Below, piece by piece: positions 15,611 through 31,324 of a stretch of DNA of 64,000 nt. Location of the stretch: contig OX637337.1 of assembly GCA_951799405.1 (NCBI GenBank), forward strand, positions 18,784,347 through 18,848,346. Reading direction: 5' to 3'. Position 1 is the stretch's first letter. Each line of letters begins with the position of its first letter. A program made the translations under genes and the position numbers. The notes below the pieces were generated by a model that did not search any database, was not told the origin of the DNA, and saw only the letters and a list, made by a program, of their open reading frames with translations. The DNA comes from Agapetus fuscipes (lineage: Eukaryota > Arthropoda > Insecta > Trichoptera > Glossosomatidae).

Positions 15611-16549
15611 CAGCCATTTTCCGGCGTTCCTCAAGGATCAAATCTGGGTCCATTGGCCTTTATTATAATCATTAATGATATAGTAGATATCATTAAGTAC
15701 AGCTCTTGTCTTCTTTATGCAGACGATTTGAAGGTTTACACGAAAGTTGTAGATATTCACGACTGCATAAATCTGCAACATGATTTAGATGCATTAGCAG
15801 CTTGGGCTGAGAAAAACAAGCTCTTCTTTAACTCAAAGAAATGTGTCTCAATGTCGTTCACTAAATCTTTCAGACCCATCTTGTATGAGTACAGTATTGG
15901 TGGGCAATTACTGTCTCGTGTGAAATCAATGCGGGATCTGGGAGTTGTGTTTGATCCTGGACTGAAGTTCTCCGATCATATAACGCAGCTGATGACGAAG
16001 TGCTACCAGCTGCTGGGATTAGTAATCAGAGTGAGCAAACAACTCACTGACCCCAGAGCGATGGTTGACGTCTTCAGCTGCGTTATACGATCCAAATTAG
16101 AGTACGCTGTCGAGGTTTGGACTCCTTTTCAGCGGAAGTACATAGATATGATAGAACAAGTCCAAAAAAAGTTTCTCAGGTATCTCCTCATGAGGCGGTG
16201 TGGAAGTTACCCACAATTCATGCATCATGAGGAGCTACTTCGGGAGACTGGATTTAGAAGCCTTGAAACGAGGCGCAACAGGTCCCTTATGGTGCTCACT
16301 CATAAGGTCATCAACGGCTTAATTGACAGTCCCACCCTGTTGGAGGGCTACAGGTTGTATGTGCCTGACGACTACACCCGAGGGCGAGGACATGATCTAT
16401 TTCATGTACCGAAAAGCCGTACTGATGTCGTGGCGCAACACCCTGTGACTCGGAGTATAAAGTTCTTAAATAAGTCAAATATAGACATTTTTGAATGTAA
16501 TTTATTAAGATTTAAAAATTTAGCAAAAGAGTTCCTCCCAGCGTGTTGA
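15611..16549 (+). pseudogene. 5'-truncated LINE reverse transcriptase, open frame
   Basis: Continuous reading frame of about 312 residues covering the second half of a Jockey/I-like non-LTR reverse transcriptase. It opens inside the SGVPQGSNLGPL block at about 15620-15652. The catalytic YADD lies at about 15716-15727, followed by LAAWAEKNKLFFNSKKC, DLGVVFDPGLKFSDHI, IRSKLEYAVEVWTPF and IEQVQKKFLRYL blocks. The endonuclease, the first ORF and the N-terminal RT domains are missing, so it cannot be autonomous. A short poly-A run at 16590-16608 follows the stop codon, as expected of a target-primed insertion. The absence of stops suggests a fairly young copy. Confidence 0.88.
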
Positions 16550-23884: not shown

Positions 23885-23888
23885 GTAT
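23885..23888. other. Target-site duplication, left copy
   Basis: GTAT, repeated at 31116-31119 immediately after the 3' LTR. Confidence 0.85.
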
Positions 23889-24406
23889 TGTTATGTAAAT
23901 ATAAATATTGAAATAAGTATGGGTAGTTATAGTGTTATGTAAATATAAATATTGAAATAAGTATGGATAGTTATAGTTATAAGAATCCTCAAAAGTATTG
24001 GTAGGTAAGATCGATAATTATGTATAAGTGTAGAATTCTCTAGGCTAAGTAGGTATTTGTTATAATTATAGGAATACTGTATTGCATTGGTAGGTAGGAT
24101 TTTGGTTGTGTCTAGGTAGTACGTGAAACATCGAGAAGTAATAATTACTCTGGAACCTTCTAGCAACTATAGGTCTAGATTATACTGCTCTAAAGAGTAT
24201 AAAGGGTGCAAATGGCCTGCAGAGCGGCCAGTATCATAGCGACCAACAAACACATCGAAGCCATCTGATCAGTGAACCGAAACCAAGTAGAATAATCGAG
24301 AAAGTAGTGTGAAAATAAATTTTGTAACAGTGTAAAATAAATAACTATTGAAGAAGACCTGTGTATTTTTTTAATTTGAAGACAATTGAACCCTAATTTC
24401 GTAACA
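23889..24406 (+). repeat. 5' LTR (518 bp)
   Basis: Starts TGTTATG and ends GTAACA (TG...CA). The first 44 bp are tandemly duplicated (23889-23932 and 23933-23976). It contains a TATA-like box at 24198-24203 and AATAAA signals at 24314-24319 and 24336-24341. I found no difference from the 3' LTR. Confidence 0.96.
24198..24203 (+). promoter_or_regulatory. Candidate LTR TATA box
   Basis: TATAAA followed by GGGTGCAAATGG in the middle of the LTR, at a suitable place for the U3/R boundary. The same site lies at 30907-30912 in the 3' LTR. The solo LTR at 6.6 kb keeps GTATAAGAAGGGTGC. Confidence 0.5.
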
Positions 24407-24408
24407 AT

Positions 24409-24425
24409 TGGTGTCAGGTGTGGGG
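24409..24425 (+). other. Primer-binding site
   Basis: TGGTGTCAGGTGTGGGG begins 2 bases after the LTR end. The TGG start complements a tRNA CCA 3' terminus. I did not assign the tRNA. Confidence 0.75.
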
Positions 24426-25072
24426 TTGTCAAGAAAAATTAAGATCTTCTGTCTAAAAATAAATAAAATAAATTAAATAGTGTTAAAATGAACTTTATTC
24501 AAATTGAACTTTGTGTGAACTGACTTTTGTGAAAACAAGTGTTTAAATAAATTTTTGTTAAAAGAAAAGACGCAAAAAGCAAGTTCAAAAAAAATTCTGG
24601 AACATCATATGGAACATAATTCTGGACATAACATAATGACTATTTTACCGCATTGAGAAAGTCATCAAATTGGACCATAGTTTTTTTTTTATTATTGTGT
24701 GTGATTAAAAAATAAAATAAATAAATAAAAATCTTGAAAAATATTACAAAAGAACGTTCCAGATTCATCGAGAAAAAGTTTTTGAATAACTGCCCTTCGT
24801 TTACCAGTGTGTGAATGTACATTAAGTACCTACCTGTGTGTTTGAAAGACTTGAGACGAAATAAATAATTATGTACTATCAGACATTATTATGTAAAAAA
24901 ATATTGGTGAATTAAAAATAAATATTAAAAGACAGTACCTACTCACAGTGTAATCAGATAAATTATTATTTTTGCTAAAGTACGTATTCAAAACAGCTAT
25001 ATATATAAAACTCAAAACTTGTATTAAATAAATTTGAAAATATTTTTGTTTTGACGTAAATTTTGAAAAAAA
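24426..25072 (+). other. 5' untranslated leader of the gypsy element
   Basis: About 650 bp of AT-rich sequence between the PBS and the gag start. It contains no long plus-strand frame and no evident splice-dependent ORF. Confidence 0.7.
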
Positions 25073-26380
25073 ATGGCAACTAAAGTGAACGTCAAGGACC
25101 TCAAAGTCACTGAGCTTAAAAATGAGCTTCTGGAGAGGGACCTGGAGACCTCAGGAGGAAAGGCAGCCTTACAAGCACGCCTCATAGAGGCCTTGGAACA
25201 GTCAGGCGAAGACCCGGCATATTTTGTCATGGCGTCTGGAGGGGACCGCGCCTTGGACGAGCTAAATATCAGCATCAACAGTAACCTGACAGGACTGAAG
25301 ACTGAGATGGCTGACAACGCCAAGACCCTGGAGGAGAAGATGGCTGACAACGCCAAGACCCTGGAGGAGAAGATGACCACCAACCTGAAGGAAGTGGTGA
25401 CCGACCTGAAGGTGGAAATGGCTGACAACGCCAGGAATCTGGAGGAAAAGGTGTCCCGAAATCTCACAACCCTGAAAGGAGAAATGGAAGAGAAGATGAC
25501 AGCCCTGAAGGGGGAAATGGAGACTCGTATATCAAGCCTGGAGGACCGTCTGCGTGCCGAGCTGGCTGACAAGTGCCAGATGGAGTCCACCAGAATATCC
25601 CCCAAAGACGGCCTTCACGACGAGACCGACCAGGGATGCTCAACTCCAACCAGGGTCACTAGAGGGGATGACGACCCTTCGCTGTCGAAGCACAACCTTC
25701 CGACCTTCGACGGGAAGACGTCGTGGGAGGAGTATTTGACCCTCTTTGAGACGGCTGCCATGATGGGAGCCTGGAGCCAGCAGAAGAAGGCTTCGGTTCT
25801 CAGCCTGTCGCTCCGAGGAGACGCTCTCAGGGTTCTGCAGGCCATACCCCTGGACAACCGTGGTGACTTTGGGCAGCTGAAGCAGCGCTTGGATATGCGC
25901 TATGGCCACAAGTGCCTGGAGCAGCTGTACAAGTCGCAGCTGAACACAAGGGTGCAGAAGCCCAACGAGAGCCTCCAGGAGTTTGAAATGGACATCGCCC
26001 GCCTGGTACGAGACGCTTACCCGACAGCCTCCGACGACATCTGTGAGAGCTTGGCAGTGGACAAGTTCCTAAATGGATTGCGGGAATGGGAGACGCAACA
26101 AGCCGTAAAACTGGCCCATCCCAAGGCTTTGAACGAGGCGCTCAGCCAAGCTCTCGAGTTTGAGGCTGTCAAACAGTCCATCAGGGGCCACGCCAGGGTT
26201 CGTGCAGTCGAGGCAGAGGAGGTCAAGCTACCTACAACCGAGGAGCTAATTGAAAAAGTGCTGGAACGTCTGAGACCTCGAAGACGAGACCCACGCTGCT
26301 GGAACTGCGGACAGCTGGGCCACCTTAGCACCAAGTGTCCCAAGCCTCAGAAACCCAGAAAACAGGCTGCGGAAAACTAG
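25073..26380 (+). CDS. gag: Gag polyprotein with SAP domain and CCHC knuckle
   Basis: 435 residues. The start ATG is in a good context (AAAAAAAATGG). Residues about 7-43 form a SAP-type helix-turn-helix (LKVTELKNELLERDL, GGKAALQARLIEAL), a DNA-binding module of chromatin proteins. Residues 79 to about 170 are charged heptad-like repeats with three near-copies of MADNAKTLEEK, predicting a coiled coil. Residues about 208-355 are a retrotransposon Gag (capsid) region with WEEYL, LRG, L-x-x-RY and FLNGL motifs. Residues 409-422 are one CX2CX4HX4C zinc knuckle that should bind genomic RNA. It likely assembles cytoplasmic particles. Its last 52 nt overlap the pol frame, which is -1 relative to gag. 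Confidence 0.95.
   Translation: MATKVNVKDLKVTELKNELLERDLETSGGKAALQARLIEALEQSGEDPAYFVMASGGDRALDELNISINSNLTGLKTEMADNAKTLEEKMADNAKTLEEKMTTNLKEVVTDLKVEMADNARNLEEKVSRNLTTLKGEMEEKMTALKGEMETRISSLEDRLRAELADKCQMESTRISPKDGLHDETDQGCSTPTRVTRGDDDPSLSKHNLPTFDGKTSWEEYLTLFETAAMMGAWSQQKKASVLSLSLRGDALRVLQAIPLDNRGDFGQLKQRLDMRYGHKCLEQLYKSQLNTRVQKPNESLQEFEMDIARLVRDAYPTASDDICESLAVDKFLNGLREWETQQAVKLAHPKALNEALSQALEFEAVKQSIRGHARVRAVEAEEVKLPTTEELIEKVLERLRPRRRDPRCWNCGQLGHLSTKCPKPQKPRKQAAEN
26329..26380 (+). other. gag-pol overlap, presumed -1 frameshift zone
   Basis: The pol frame opens at 26329 (after TAG at 26326-26328) and gag stops at 26378-26380. The best slip candidate is G-GAA-AAC, immediately before the gag TAG, which shifts to CTA GAA. 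It is not a perfect X-XXY-YYZ heptamer. No better site is visible in the overlap. Confidence 0.6.
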
Positions 26381-29300
26381 AAAGGGTTAATGGGAAGGGG
26401 CAACCGTTGACCCACGCTGGAGAGGCCCTGAAATCTGCTGCTACTGTCGCAACCGTGAGAGGAAAAGCCAGCAGCATTTTTATCAATGGCATAATAGATG
26501 GAGTAACTCGTGAACTACTGGTGGACACGGGAGCAACCAGGACAATTCTGAGACGCGACATAGTGGCACGAGGTAAGCAGATTGCACCAACAAAGTGGTC
26601 TCTGCACACCGCCACGGGAGAGTCAGCACAGGTGTATGGGGAGACGATTGCCACCTTCCAAATTGGCAGCACCACTTTTGATCATCGGACGTTGGTGGCC
26701 AACATTGAAGAAGACGTTATATTGGGAATGGACATACTGGACAGATTTGGGTGCAGTTTAAATTTAAAGAAAGGGTCCATTAAAATTGGAAATGAAGAAG
26801 TCATCCTGCAAAGACGGAAAGAACTGGCTGCACGTGTTATCCTAGCCAAGAATACCGAAGTGAAGGGGCGATCCGAGATGATAGTGAGTGCCCGCCTGGA
26901 TTCCAGTAGTACAAATGACCAAATCTGTATGATAGAACCGGAGAACATGGACAATGTTAACAAAGGAGTCATGGTGGCAAGAACAGTGATTCGCGCAAAG
27001 GAGACCATTCCTGTCAAGATCATGAATGTGAACAGCTACCCAGTTAAAATGAATGAAGGTTTTGTTTTGGGCAGATGTGAGAGGATAACTTCCATTGTGC
27101 AACAGATGACAAACATGTCATGCGAAGGAAACAAATTGTCAACACAATTGGAAGCCCTGGTCCACGACGCTTCCCAAGGTCTAACCGAGGAAAACAAACG
27201 GAGAGTGAGGAGTTTGATCTGCCGCTACCAGAACATTTTCGAGGACTCTAATGGCCGTCTGGGAAGAACCAAGGTAGTGCGACATAGCTTAGACACCGGA
27301 GAAGCGAGACCAATAAAACAGGCTCCAAGAAGACTACCCTTTGCAAAGCGGGAAGAAGCTGACAAGATCATCAAAGACCTGAGCAAGGATGGCATCATAG
27401 AACCATCAAGTAGCCCTTGGACATCCCCGGTGGTACTGGTGAAAAAGAAGGATGGTACCACGAGATTTTGTGTGGACTACAGACTGCTCAACGATGTTAC
27501 GAAAAAGGATAGTTACCCTCTGCCAAGGATTGACGACACCTTGGACACATTGGCAGGATGCACCATTTTTTCCACATTGGACCTGAAAAGTGGCTACTGG
27601 CAAGTTGAATTGGATGCCAAAGATAAGGAGAAAACTGCATTCTCGACTGGATCTGGACTTTGGCAGTTCACCGTGATGCCATTTGGCTTATGCAATGCCC
27701 CCGCCACGTTTGAAAGGCTGATGGAGAATGTGCTGCGAGGACTGTCATGGGAAACCTGCCTGGTATACTTGGATGACATAATAATCCTGGGAAAGGACTT
27801 CAACCATCAGTTGAGAAATCTGGAGCAAGTTTTCGGGCGACTACAAGACGCTGGACTGAAGCTCAACCCGAAAAAGTGTAACCTGTTCAAGAAACAAGTA
27901 AATTACCTGGGACACATAGTTTCTCAACGTGGAGTTGAAGTTGACCCTGCCAAAATCAAGGCAGTAAGAGACTGGCCCGTGCTGAAGGACAAACATGAAA
28001 CTAGGAGTTTCCTGGGGCTGTGCACTTATTACAGGAGGTTTGTGCCAAGATTTGCGGACATTGCAAAACCGCTCACCAAGCTTACGGAAGAAAACACTCG
28101 CTTCCATTGGAGTGATTCCTGCGCACAAGCATTTGAAGAGCTTAAGGGAAGATTAACAAGTGCCCCCATCTTGAGCTACCCACGAAAAGATGGAAAGTTC
28201 ATCCTGGATACCGACGCTAGTAATGTGGGGATAGGAGGCGTCCTTTCCCAAATACAGGATGGGCATGAGACTGTTCTGGGTTACTTCAGTAAAGTGCTTT
28301 CCAAGCCAGAACGAAATTATTGCGTGACCAGACGAGAGCTTCTTGCCGTGATAAAATCGGTGGAACACTTCCGCAAATACTTGTACGGGAGAAAATTCAC
28401 ACTACGGACTGATCATGCTGCACTGGTTTGGCTTCTGAAATTCAAAAACCCAGAAGGGCAAGTGGCTAGATGGATTGAAAGGCTCCAGGAGTATGATTAT
28501 GACTCCGAACATAGACCTGGCACGCTTCATCGAAATGCGGATGCATTATCCAGACGACCATGCGCCAGTGACTGCAAACATTGCAGCAAGATGGAGGACA
28601 AGGTAGCAATTGTCCAAAGGACGACCACCGAAGATGAGGACTGGCAAGATGAAAAATTGGCGCAAGACCAACTGAATGATCCGGACTTGAAGTATGTGAT
28701 GGAATGGGCGCGAGAAGGAGAAAGGCCAACCTGGGAAAAACTCGCCCCCTTATCACCAACTGTCAAGGCTTATTGGGCTCAATGGGGATCCATAGTGATA
28801 GAAGGAGGGTTTCTGAAACGAAAGATCGAGAAGGAAGACGGCACACTTAGAAGAAAGCAAACCCTCGTTCCGAGGAGCCGAGTACCGGAAATCCTTGGAC
28901 TGCTGCATGGAGGAACTTCTGGAGGACATCTAGGCGTTAAGAAGACGCTGGAGAAAGTGAAAGAGCGATTTTACTGGATCAACTGCAGCGAAGACGTCAA
29001 AGATTGGTGTCGAAAATGTGTAACCTGTGCAACGGCCAATGGACCGCAAAGGAAAAGGCGAGCACCAATGCGTCAGTACAATGTTGGCAGCCCCTTTGAA
29101 AGAATTGCCATCGACATAGCTGGCCCATTTCCTACAACTGAGAAGGGTAACAAGTACATCATGGTGGTGATGGATTACTTCAGCAAGTGGGTGGAAGCTT
29201 ACTCAATCCCTAACCAAGAGGCCGTAACCGTGACTGAAGTTCTAGTTACCGAATTTATCAGCAGGTTTGGCGTACCCCTGGAATTACATTCTGATCAGGG

Positions 29301-30597
29301 AAGGAACTTTGAAGCTGCTATCTTCCAGCAAATGTGTGAGCGGCTAGGGATCTACAAGACCAGGACCACTGCGCTACATCCACAGTCTGATGGAATGGTG
29401 GAAAGGATGAACCGTACCGTGGGGAGGTACTTAGCCAAAGTAGTGTCCAGCCATCAGCGGGACTGGGACCGACATCTGCCTTTGTTCTTATTGGCTTACC
29501 GGTCGGCTGTTCAGGAAACGACGAAGAAGACTCCCAGCAGCATACTGTTTGGGCGAGAAATGCGACTTCCTTGTGATCTCAAATTTGGCTGCAAACCAGG
29601 TGAAGACCTAGCCGGAGAAGACTATGTGACAGACCTTCGCAGGAGGCTGGATGACATCCATGATCAGGTCCGCATGAACATCGGGGAAGCCAGCGATCAA
29701 ATGAAGGAGCGCTATGACACCAGAGCTGACAGCATGGGGTACAAAGCTGGTGACTGGGTGTGGCTTTTTGACCCCAAGAGGCGCCAAGGATACTGTCCGA
29801 AACTTCAGCGTTCCTGGGACGGGCCGTACGAGATCTTGGAGCGCATCAACGATGTGGTCTACCGCATAAAAAAGAGACCAAACGGAAAACCAAGGGTCGT
29901 GCACTACAATCGCCTCTCACCATACCTAGGCGATAATGATGACCAACCAGCCCAAAAAGTACGACAGTGCGTCGCATCCGAAAGATCACCAGCCTTTGAG
30001 ACGTTTTGGGAGAACGCGAAGGCAGGGCAGAAGTTTCGCCATGGAGTGACCACAGAAGTCCACAAGGACTTATTTGAGGTCACTAGGGACCACACACTGG
30101 CATGCAGTGTACCGGAAGATCTAGATATGTCTAGAGGAATTGCACGGGTCTTCCGATACAAATTCGGAGAACCGCAACCCTCGAGCAGCCCGCAAGGAAG
30201 AGCTCTGAGACTACCGAAGGGGCGTCAACAAGCATACTGCCTGGTTGTCCCGGATTCCAGCAACCTGGAAGAGGACTACAAGGCATTGTGGGACGGCCTT
30301 GTTGAGCTGCGTGACTACATGTTGGAGGATCAGCAGGCGCGTCTGGCAATACCGAAGATGGGTGGCGGCCGCGCTAATCGAGACTGGCGGATAATCCGGA
30401 GTATGATTGAAGCAGTGTTCTCGGGAGTCGGCATCAGCGTCATGGTGTGCTGCGAGCAAGCGCAGCCGAGAGCCAGTGGGGAGAAATCCGTGGACTGCCA
30501 CTTCTTCCTGACCACAGGGTGTCGACGTGGATCAGCATGCCCCTACCTACACAGAGTCAAGACTGTTCCGGGACGAAACAGTCTAGGTGGGGGGTAG
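26329..30597 (+). CDS. pol: Pol polyprotein: PR-RT-RNaseH-IN plus macro domain and CCCH finger
   Basis: About 1420 residues, numbered here from the GTG at 26335, although expression is probably by frameshift from gag. Aspartic protease: LLVDTGA with D64. Reverse transcriptase: about 340-520, with YLDD at 478-481. RNase H: about 620-740, with acidic residues D625/D627, E668, D693 and D736. Integrase: HHCC finger H858, H865, C895, C898; DDE core D927, D987, E1023 (35-residue D-E spacing); GPYE at 1163. Typical gypsy Pol proteins end soon after this point. This one continues for about 240 residues with a macro-like domain (about 1243-1378) and a CCCH finger (1388-1406). All listed catalytic residues are intact and no stops interrupt the frame. 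The stop TAG directly abuts the 3' LTR. Confidence 0.95.
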   Translation, partial: HQVSQASETQKTGCGKLERVNGKGQPLTHAGEALKSAATVATVRGKASSIFINGIIDGVTRELLVDTGATRTILRRDIVARGKQIAPTKWSLHTATGESAQVYGETIATFQIGSTTFDHRTLVANIEEDVILGMDILDRFGCSLNLKKGSIKIGNEEVILQRRKELAARVILAKNTEVKGRSEMIVSARLDSSSTNDQICMIEPENMDNVNKGVMVARTVIRAKETIPVKIMNVNSYPVKMNEGFVLGRCERITSIVQQMTNMSCEGNKLSTQLEALVHDASQGLTEENKRRVRSLICRYQNIFEDSNGRLGRTKVVRHSLDTGEARPIKQAPRRLPFAKREEADKIIKDLSKDGIIEPSSSPWTSPVVLVKKKDGTTRFCVDYRLLNDVTKKDSYPLPRIDDTLDTLAGCTIFSTLDLKSGYWQVELDAKDKEKTAFSTGSGLWQFTVMPFGLCNAPATFERLMENVLRGLSWETCLVYLDDIIILGKDFNHQLRNLEQVFGRLQDAGLKLNPKKCNLFKKQVNYLGHIVSQRGVEVDPAKIKAVRDWPVLKDKHETRSFLGLCTYYRRFVPRFADIAKPLTKLTEENTRFHWSDSCAQAFEELKGRLTSAPILSYPRKDGKFILDTDASNVGIGGVLSQIQDGHETVLGYFSKVLSKPERNYCVTRRELLAVIKSVEHFRKYLYGRKFTLRTDHAALVWLLKFKNPEGQVARWIERLQEYDYDSEHRPGTLHRNADALSRRPCASDCKHCSKMEDKVAIVQRTTTEDEDWQDEKLAQDQLNDPDLKYVMEWAREGERPTWEKLAPLSPTVKAYWAQWGSIVIEGGFLKRKIEKEDGTLRRKQTLVPRSRVPEILGLLHGGTSGGHLGVKKTLEKVKERFYWINCSEDVKDWCRKCVTCATANGPQRKRRAPMRQYNVGSPFERIAIDIAGPFPTTEKGNKYIMVVMDYFSKWVEAYSIPNQEAVTVTEVLVTEFISRFGVPLELHSDQGRNFEAAIFQQMCERLGIYKTRTTALHPQSDGMVERMNRTVGRYLAKVVSSHQRDWDRHLPLFLLAYRSAVQETTKKTPSSILFGREMRLPCDLKFGCKPGEDLAGEDYVTDLRRRLDDIHDQVRMNIGEASDQMKERYDTRADSMGYKAGDWVWLFDPKRRQGYCPKLQRSWDGPYEILERINDVVYRIKKRPNGKPRVVHYNRLSPYLGDNDDQPAQKVRQCVASERSPAFETFWENAKAGQKFRHGVTTEVHKDLFEVTRDHTLACSVPEDLDMSRGIARVFRYKFGEPQPSSSPQGRALRLPKGRQQAYCLVVPDSSNLEEDYKALWDGLVELRDYMLEDQQARLAIPKMGGGRANRDWRIIRSMIEAVFSGVGISVMVCCEQAQPRASGEKSVDCHFFLTTGCRRGSACPYLHRVKTVPGRNSLGGG
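30052..30468 (+). other. Pol segment encoding a TARG1/OARD1-like macro domain
   Basis: Pol residues about 1240-1378. The order of motifs follows the TARG1/OARD1/ALC1-like macro fold: a DLF strand at 1245-1247; a TLACSVPEDLDMSRGIARVF segment aligned to the family's SLAHC-S-D-xxMGAGIA loop; KFG; an AYCLVV strand; YKALWDGLVELRDYM helix; LAIPKMGGGR (family AMPRIGCG, glycine loop at 1343-1345); DW; MIEAVF; and a final GISVMV strand. As I recall TARG1, its catalytic Lys84 aligns with proline here, and Asp125 has no exact match (nearest acidic residue one or more positions away in the RANRDW loop). Binding without hydrolysis, or a changed chemistry, is possible. The fold assignment is by motif reading only. 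Confidence 0.7.
30496..30552 (+). other. Pol segment encoding a CCCH zinc finger
   Basis: C1388-x7-C1396-x5-C1402-x3-H1406, the spacing of CCCH (C-x7/8-C-x5-C-x3-H) RNA-binding fingers, with the usual aromatic residues and GxxCPYxH ending. It lies 14 residues before the C-terminus of Pol and follows the macro-like domain. Confidence 0.8.
30585..30597 (+). other. Polypurine tract
   Basis: AGGTGGGGGGTAG directly precedes the 3' LTR. It overlaps the end of the pol frame, and its TAG is the pol stop codon. Confidence 0.85.
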
Positions 30598-31115
30598 TGT
30601 TATGTAAATATAAATATTGAAATAAGTATGGGTAGTTATAGTGTTATGTAAATATAAATATTGAAATAAGTATGGATAGTTATAGTTATAAGAATCCTCA
30701 AAAGTATTGGTAGGTAAGATCGATAATTATGTATAAGTGTAGAATTCTCTAGGCTAAGTAGGTATTTGTTATAATTATAGGAATACTGTATTGCATTGGT
30801 AGGTAGGATTTTGGTTGTGTCTAGGTAGTACGTGAAACATCGAGAAGTAATAATTACTCTGGAACCTTCTAGCAACTATAGGTCTAGATTATACTGCTCT
30901 AAAGAGTATAAAGGGTGCAAATGGCCTGCAGAGCGGCCAGTATCATAGCGACCAACAAACACATCGAAGCCATCTGATCAGTGAACCGAAACCAAGTAGA
31001 ATAATCGAGAAAGTAGTGTGAAAATAAATTTTGTAACAGTGTAAAATAAATAACTATTGAAGAAGACCTGTGTATTTTTTTAATTTGAAGACAATTGAAC
31101 CCTAATTTCGTAACA
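30598..31115 (+). repeat. 3' LTR (518 bp)
   Basis: Same length as the 5' LTR and, by eye, the same sequence, including the 44-bp duplication. The AATAAA polyadenylation signals fall at 31023-31028 and 31045-31050. It is followed by the GTAT duplication at 31116-31119. Confidence 0.96.
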
Positions 31116-31324
31116 GTATCATTATACTTGCTGTACATAGTTTGTTTTCCCTTTGTGGTTAAAAATAAGAAAAAACGAAAAAATAGCGTGAGTAATACAA
31201 TATGCCTGCAAAAAAAGAAAATAATACAAAAAAGAATACAGATTGAAAGAAAGACAGAGTTATGGGGAAATGAACTTAAGCCAGGCTTGAAAGTGTCTGT
31301 TCTTTTTTAGTGAAAGAAAAAAAT

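What the first reader, a model, noticed from the sequence alone, without database searches (positions are those of the whole stretch)
30052..30468. TARG1/OARD1-like macro domain fused to the C-terminus of a Ty3/gypsy Pol
After the integrase GPY/F region (Pol residue about 1163), where gypsy Pol normally ends soon, the same uninterrupted frame continues. It shows, in order, DLF, TLAC-x-VPED-x-DMSRGIA-x-VF, KFG, a hydrophobic strand, an LxELRDYM helix, LAIPKMGGGR, DW, MIEAVF and GISVMV. That is the motif order and length (about 135 residues) of ADP-ribose-binding macro domains of the TARG1/OARD1/ALC1-like class. As I recall TARG1, its catalytic Lys and Asp are not in register here, so it may bind rather than hydrolyse. 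Viral macrodomains counter host ADP-ribosylation. A retrotransposon using one against host silencing, or to bind chromatin ADP-ribose, would be a new arrangement as far as I know. The role is inference.
Basis: partly seen in the sequence, partly recalled or inferred. Interest (0 to 1): 0.88.

Follow-up and report, generated by a model that had tools for sequence, protein, structure and literature searches.

The report
Retrotransposon Pol with ADP-ribose-binding macro domain
A young, abundant insect-type jumping gene carries, at the end of its replication enzyme, a captured copy of a cellular domain that binds or removes ADP-ribose tags plus a small zinc finger, and relatives carry the same domain with its catalytic residues still in place, which hints at a conflict between retrotransposons and host ADP-ribose signalling.

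Summary
The finding is real. Pol (26335-30597, +) of an env-less Ty3/gypsy LTR element continues past the integrase GPY/F module into a TARG1/OARD1-class macro domain (about 30052-30453): E 8e-11 to human TARG1; the eight best Foldseek hits are TARG1. Seventeen relatives carry the domain behind integrase; six other gypsy-type Pols carry one, five of them elsewhere in Pol. TARG1's catalytic Lys and Asp are kept in 23 of 23 other retroelement Pols and 28 of 28 other proteins, but are Pro and Ala in the window and Arg and Ala in a sister family. Divergent copies show purifying selection. A derivative in this genome lacks protease, RT, RNase H and integrase but keeps Gag fused to a myosin-tail coil and this macro-CCCH module. 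Best reading: an ancestral ADP-ribosyl hydrolase turned here into a Gag-associated ADP-ribose or nucleic-acid binder; the role is untested. Nine literature searches found no macro domain in a Ty3/gypsy element.

The parts
23885..23888 (.). target-site duplication GTAT, left copy
   Evidence: GTAT directly before the 5' LTR and directly after the 3' LTR
23889..24406 (+). 5' LTR, 518 nt, TG...CA; begins with a 44-nt tandem duplication
   Evidence: identical over 518 nt to 30598-31115; tandem repeat
24409..24426 (+). candidate primer-binding site (TGGTGTCAGG...), two bases after the LTR
   Evidence: read from the sequence; primer tRNA not identified
25073..26380 (+). Gag, 435 aa: SAP domain, coiled stretch, Retrotrans_gag, CCHC knuckle
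   Evidence: Pfam SAP 3.6e-8, zf-CCHC 1.5e-5, Retrotrans_gag 2.1e-5
25091..25198 (+). SAP domain in Gag (aa 7-42)
   Evidence: PF02037 33.3 bits, cut-off 23.9
26335..30597 (+). Pol, 1420 aa as listed (frame opens after the stop at 26326), -1 frame relative to Gag and overlapping it
29821..29922 (+). Integrase_p58_C (GPY/F-type) module, Pol 1163-1196
   Evidence: PF22938 3e-12
30052..30453 (+). TARG1/OARD1-class macro domain (Pol about 1240-1373); Pro and Ala at the TARG1 Lys84 and Asp125 positions
30496..30552 (+). CCCH zinc finger C-x7-C-x5-C-x3-H (Pol 1388-1406)
   Evidence: PF00642 E 0.004 in full Pol (17.5 bits, under the cut-off 20.5), 2.8e-4 (21.2 bits) on the cut piece
30586..30597 (+). 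polypurine tract ggtggggggtag containing the Pol stop codon
   Evidence: read from the sequence
30598..31115 (+). 3' LTR, 518 nt, identical to the 5' LTR
31116..31119 (.). target-site duplication GTAT, right copy

Best explanation
Shown: an intact-looking, env-less Ty3/gypsy element with identical LTRs whose Pol ends in a TARG1-class macro domain plus a CCCH finger, a module shared by related elements, some of them from named insects. Inferred: the module arose by capture of an insect TARG1 gene and first worked as an ADP-ribosyl hydrolase that removed ADP-ribose put by the host on element proteins, RNA or cDNA ends (TARG1 is reported to clean terminal phosphates of dsDNA and ssRNA). In the branch leading to the window family and its sister family the Lys/Asp pair was lost while the domain stayed under purifying selection, so here it most likely binds ADP-ribose or ADP-ribosylated nucleic acid or protein without TARG1-type hydrolysis, with the CCCH finger contacting RNA. 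Because a derivative keeps the module fused to Gag after losing protease, RT, RNase H and integrase, it most likely works in or with the Gag particle and not only as an integrase tether.
For: Identity. CCCH; found in 11 of 17 related C-terminal Pols. Conservation. Lys/Asp kept in 23 of 23 other retroelement Pols and 28 of 28 other proteins and in the three copies read of another gypsy lineage in this genome; lost in the window and in 27 of 27 sister-family loci L072-L098. The window is nested among K/D-intact Pols, so the loss is derived. Constraint: dN/dS 0.21 and 0.20 (window against L101 and L102, linker plus macro), excess of synonymous change p 3.8e-5 and 2.5e-6. Derivative Gag-coil-macro-CCCH. 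Abundance: the 150 scored of 1412 candidates are 100% identical over 223 aa, 106 of them (the window included) in frames of exactly 1422 aa (my count); 26 of 30 loci identical at DNA level over the extension. TARG1 acts on dsDNA and ssRNA ends and binds RNA (passages of PMC8053099).
Against: No binding or enzyme data. Loss of Lys/Asp does not prove loss of hydrolysis (SCO6735). The domain evolves fast where the pair is lost: mean macro identity 41.9% against 55.6% for intact pairs at similar integrase identity, which also fits relaxed constraint. Other comparisons are weaker: window against L104 0.41 (linker plus macro), macro alone 0 synonymous and 2 other changes; tail plus CCCH against L102 0.94 on four changes. 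The derivative could keep this 3' part for a cis reason, and its constraint may partly reflect the autonomous source through recombination (gag dS about 0.55 but extension dS about 0.17 in L102 against L104).
Confidence: 0.5

Rival explanations
1. Integration-targeting module: the macro domain at the integrase C-terminus reads ADP-ribosylated chromatin or PARP-active damage sites and steers insertion, as chromodomains do in chromoviruses (recalled).
For: Position directly after GPY/F, the place where chromodomains sit in chromoviruses (recalled); catalytic pair lost, as in a reader; SAP domain in Gag suggests nuclear targeting (inference).
Against: In other Pols the macro domain sits between RNase H and integrase, before the protease, or before RT; a derivative keeps it with Gag and without integrase.
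Confidence: 0.2
2. It is still an ADP-ribosyl hydrolase, using different residues, as SCO6735 does.
For: SCO6735 lacks both TARG1 catalytic residues and hydrolyses DNA-linked ADP-ribose (passages of PMC9411070); domain constrained.
Against: SCO6735 needs Gln at the Lys position; here it is Pro, in the sister family Arg; the loop with the Asp is also changed (GGGRANRDW against, for example, GCGLDGLDW).
Confidence: 0.12
3. RNA-binding or packaging module: macro fold and CCCH finger bind element RNA and ADP-ribose no longer matters.
For: CCCH finger kept together with the macro domain in the window, in the sister family and in the Gag derivative; TARG1 binds RNA oligomers (passages).
Against: Five related C-terminal Pols keep the macro domain and show no CCCH pattern (P0013, P0015, P0016, P0017, P0020; P0012 ends too early to tell); K/D-intact relatives argue for enzymatic use elsewhere.
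Confidence: 0.2
4. Passenger: a decayed captured domain without a function, retained by chance or because the DNA near the polypurine tract is needed in cis.
For: Fast amino-acid change in the K/D-less branch; the 3' position next to the polypurine tract.
Against: Synonymous excess in the seven pairs and regions tested; long open frames in the window family, sister family and derivative; CCCH residues kept between window and sister family at about 50% identity; derivative keeps the module in frame with Gag.
Confidence: 0.08

Closest known systems
TARG1/OARD1 (C6orf130) ADP-ribosyl hydrolases and the insect proteins that carry this domain
   Same: domain-length sequence match and fold; insect proteins are also hit by a relative's macro domain
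   Different: here fused to a gypsy Pol with a CCCH finger; catalytic Lys and Asp replaced; the host-like gene of this genome keeps both and is split, presumably by an intron
Ty3/gypsy elements with added C-terminal integrase domains (chromoviruses; recalled)
   Same: extra domain behind GPY/F
   Different: macro plus CCCH; no chromodomain reported
Fish epsilon-like endogenous retroviruses with macro-domain ORFs (Basta et al. 2009, seen only as cited in a passage of PMC4977317)
   Same: an LTR retroelement with a macro domain
   Different: retrovirus of fish with an additional ORF; here a Ty3/gypsy Pol fusion of another host group; the macro subclass of the fish protein was not checked
Viral macro domains (alphavirus nsP3, rubella; coronavirus Mac1)
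   Same: fold (alphaviruses and rubella; a coronavirus); genetic parasite with a macro domain

Membership tests
TARG1/ALC1-like macro domain class | domain-length sequence similarity to TARG1 | tested here: met
   phmmer E 8e-11 (2eee_A, residues 12-146)
TARG1/ALC1-like macro domain class | macro fold closest to TARG1 | tested here: met
TARG1-type hydrolase | catalytic Lys84/Asp125 pair | tested here: not met
   Pro and Ala in the window; pair named in PMC9411070 passages
TARG1-type hydrolase | ADP-ribose binding and removal | not testable with these tools
   needs purified protein
Pfam Macro (PF01661) | score over the curated cut-off | tested here: not met
   not listed for the window Pol or its cut end up to E 10
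Ty3/gypsy LTR retrotransposon | gag, then PR-RT-RH-IN order, LTRs, target-site duplication | tested here: met
Retrovirus/errantivirus | env gene | tested here: not met
   Pol stop is followed directly by the 3' LTR; no further + strand ORF of 140 aa or more within the element
CCCH zinc finger | C-x7/8-C-x5-C-x3-H | tested here: met
   CHFFLTTGCRRGSACPYLH; PF00642 21.2 bits on the piece (cut-off 20.5) but 17.5 on the full Pol
Chromovirus | chromodomain after integrase | tested here: not met
   no chromodomain among the Pfam hits up to E 10

The most novel reading that the evidence does not exclude
Insect Ty3/gypsy elements have repeatedly taken up TARG1 macro domains at different places in Pol as a counter-measure against ADP-ribosylation of their particles, RNA or cDNA ends; in the window lineage the eraser became a Gag-associated reader or decoy. 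This would mean that insects use ADP-ribosylation against retrotransposons.
Probability: 0.35. Interest if true: 0.92.

Novelty: new variant of a known kind. Interest (0 to 1): 0.82.

Why it matters
Macro domains are known in RNA viruses, where they reverse ADP-ribosylation and support replication (passages of PMC8053099). Finding the TARG1 class fused to Pol in many gypsy-type elements, with catalytic residues kept in all 23 other Pols looked at, lost but constrained in two families of this genome, and kept with Gag alone in a derivative, points to ADP-ribosylation as a front in the conflict between hosts and LTR retrotransposons, and supplies a natural active/inactive series for testing it.

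Tried and rejected
Tried and rejected: (1) chance resemblance or another fold: rejected. (2) Neighbouring host gene running into Pol: rejected, since the frame ends at the LTR and the same 223 residues recur in at least 149 other places. (3) The window extension as direct query in public proteins gave one hit only, P0001; the K/D-intact P0001 region gave 51 including itself, and a third query, P0044, gave 4 including itself. The relatives are thus picked by an intact query and the 23 of 23 count may lean towards intact ones; the sister family shows that K/D-less ones exist. (4) genome contigs gave no relative; viral contigs gave 18 loci with a macro domain that I did not examine further. (5) One origin of all 27 retroelement macro domains in the tree: not rejected, AU p 0.0516, so 'repeated capture' is not proven; the different places in Pol still require relocation or recapture. 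(6) No canonical X XXY YYZ slippery site in the part of the gag-pol overlap scanned. (7) The number of derivative copies could not be counted: that search did not complete. (8) Synonymous-excess p values use seven pairs or regions that I chose, not independent of each other, and Nei-Gojobori counts without correction for transition bias.

Literature: ten searches, listings only; one search was for the TARG1 residues, the other nine bear on novelty. Passages only: PMC4977317, PMC9411070, PMC8053099, PMC4245714 (nothing on retroelements), PMC12440569 (terms absent). Basta et al. 2009 is not held. 'Not in print' is limited to these searches of open PMC papers; no preprints are held.

Full report
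What is there. The window lies in a 618-Mb genome of 148 contigs; size, chromosome-like contigs and the insect kin of the sequences suggest an insect, which is inference. An LTR retrotransposon spans 23889-31115: two identical 518-nt LTRs flanked by GTAT on both sides, a 435-aa Gag with SAP, gag and CCHC modules, and a Pol in the -1 frame with protease, RT, RNase H, H2C2, rve and p58_C in the order of Ty3/gypsy. No env: the Pol stop codon lies in the polypurine tract and the LTR starts at the next base.

Relatives. The window extension as query finds one protein, P0001, in an assembly labelled Erysiphe pulchra, 38% identical over 98%; the label is probably contamination by an arthropod (inference). 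P0001's own macro region finds 51 proteins, itself included: 23 gypsy-type Pols or Pol fragments, from beetles (Aromia, Callosobruchus), a sawfly (Athalia), the Erysiphe assembly and unnamed contigs, and 28 others (25 named insect proteins, two unnamed, one labelled Banna virus VP5). In 17 of the 23 the macro domain lies behind the integrase p58_C region as in the window; P0001 itself continues into a Gag-like stretch, so its record is unusual, and four (P0009-P0011, P0014) are gene models with much of Pol missing. Twelve of the C-terminal set, the window included, could be placed in an RT-RNase H-integrase tree; the window falls with P0013, P0015, P0016, P0017 and P0020 (99/98), and the C-terminal set needs two label changes because P0043 falls inside on a weak branch. 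In the macro tree the C-terminal set with the sister family is one group in 94% of 200 bootstrap trees (branch support 92/62). In six other Pols the domain is C-terminal in a distant Pol (P0036), before the protease (P0037), between RNase H and integrase (P0039, P0043, P0044), or before RT and behind what looks by eye like the end of a protease without a Pfam hit (P0051). P0039 carries a second, partial macro match, as several insect proteins do. A single origin of all retroelement macro domains is not rejected (AU p 0.0516).

Catalytic residues. TARG1's Lys84 and Asp125 (pair described in PMC9411070, passages) are kept in 23 of 23 other retroelement Pols and 28 of 28 other proteins; the window has Pro and Ala. 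In the same genome a sister family (27 of 27 loci L072-L098) has Arg and Ala, a host-like TARG1 gene keeps both (L069-L071), and another gypsy lineage with the macro domain between RNase H and integrase keeps both (three of three read, L099, L100, L103). The window nests among K/D-intact Pols, so the loss is derived. Loss of the pair does not exclude hydrolysis (SCO6735).

Constraint. The 150 scored of 1412 candidates in the genome are 100% identical over the 223 residues (only the best candidates are scored, so this is not a distribution); 106 of 150, the window included, lie in frames of exactly 1422 aa by my count. At DNA level 26 of 30 loci are identical over the extension. Divergent copies, which belong to the derivative described below, allow a test: window against L101 and L102, linker plus macro, dN/dS 0.21 and 0.20; against L105 0.24 and L104 0.41 on fewer changes; tail plus CCCH against L102 0.94 on four changes. 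For L101 and L102 18 of 32 and 22 of 38 changes are synonymous where about 22% is expected (p 3.8e-5, 2.5e-6); all seven pairs or regions that I tested gave p under 0.01 (chosen by me, not independent). Against the sister family synonymous sites are saturated (pS 0.71-0.75, pN 0.33). The domain changes faster than integrase: intact pairs 73.2% integrase and 55.6% macro identity (55 pairs), pairs with one K/D-less member 71.3% and 41.9% (22 pairs), the two K/D-less families 82.0% and 52.2%. That fits either adaptation to a new use or weaker constraint.

A telling derivative. Two copies (L104, L105, about 3.5 kb each) encode one frame of 795 and 776 aa: Gag to residue 430 (83% and 80% identical to the window Gag), about 125 residues of coil, then Pol 1201-1420 (92.7% and 97.7%), followed by sequence like the window's 3' LTR; protease, RT, RNase H and integrase are absent between Gag and the extension. 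The coil is a myosin tail by Pfam (E 7.4e-12, 44.4 bits, cut-off 38.1). Of six further frames of 770-836 aa chosen, four have the same arrangement and two are Pol copies with short frames; L102 shows it too over the part read, and L101 has coil plus extension without Gag in the stretch read. L102 compared with six others gives dN/dS 0.20-0.28 (gag, 87-89 codons), 0.27-0.38 (coil), 0.26-0.39 (extension) (script stopped after six pairs). So the macro-CCCH module is kept in frame with Gag when the enzymes are gone. Much lower synonymous divergence in the extension than in gag for the same pairs suggests recombination, so part of the constraint may come from the autonomous elements.

How it may work. 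TARG1 removes ADP-ribose from acidic residues and from terminal phosphates of dsDNA and ssRNA and binds RNA (passages of PMC8053099). A retrotransposon makes both substrates, linear cDNA with free ends and an RNA genome, inside its particle (established knowledge). I infer that the ancestral module protected these or particle proteins from host ADP-ribosylation and that the window lineage turned it into a binder. The chromatin-tether alternative loses weight from the varied places in Pol and from the Gag-only derivative. None of this has been tested at the bench.

Novelty. Macro domains in fish endogenous retroviruses are on record (PMC4977317 passage citing Basta et al. 2009; the original is not held). 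In nine searches (listings) I saw no report of macro domains in Ty3/gypsy elements. I rate it a new variant of a known kind: host-domain capture by LTR elements, with a TARG1-class macro domain, a catalytic-loss series and a Gag-only derivative.

Noticed in passing
L104:596-2983, L105:583-2913 (also L102, L106, L107, L109, L111): Non-autonomous derivative: Gag fused to a myosin-tail coil and to the macro-CCCH extension, without protease, RT, RNase H and integrase.
   Followed up: yes
L099, L100, L103: A second gypsy lineage in the same genome with a TARG1-like macro domain between RNase H and integrase, catalytic Lys and Asp kept.
   Followed up: partly
P0050, P0052: TARG1-like macro domain in a protein labelled Banna virus VP5 and in an RdRp-bearing polyprotein on an unnamed contig; they pair in the macro tree next to the host-like gene of this genome.
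   Followed up: no
P0001, P0013: Insect-type gypsy Pols in an assembly labelled Erysiphe pulchra: probable contamination.
   Followed up: no
L069, L070, L071: Two places on contig C31 and one on C52 encode a host-like TARG1 domain, in L070 seen split over two frames, presumably by an intron.
   Followed up: partly
23889-23977 and 30595-30686: Both LTRs begin with a 44-nt tandem duplication; alignment without gaps to other copies often breaks at +45, which suggests length variants.
   Followed up: no
five rows with frames of 1834-1861 aa: Frame length suggests Gag and Pol in one continuous frame in these copies; not inspected.
   Followed up: no
83-660: Tandem array of a 72-nt unit, 7.9 copies.
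   Followed up: no
15653-16549: ORF with a weak reverse-transcriptase match (RVT_1 6.3e-6, under the cut-off), probably another retroelement remnant.
   Followed up: no
L031-L048: 18 IMG/VR loci encode macro domains 31-40% identical to the first sequence of the retroelement alignment.
   Followed up: no
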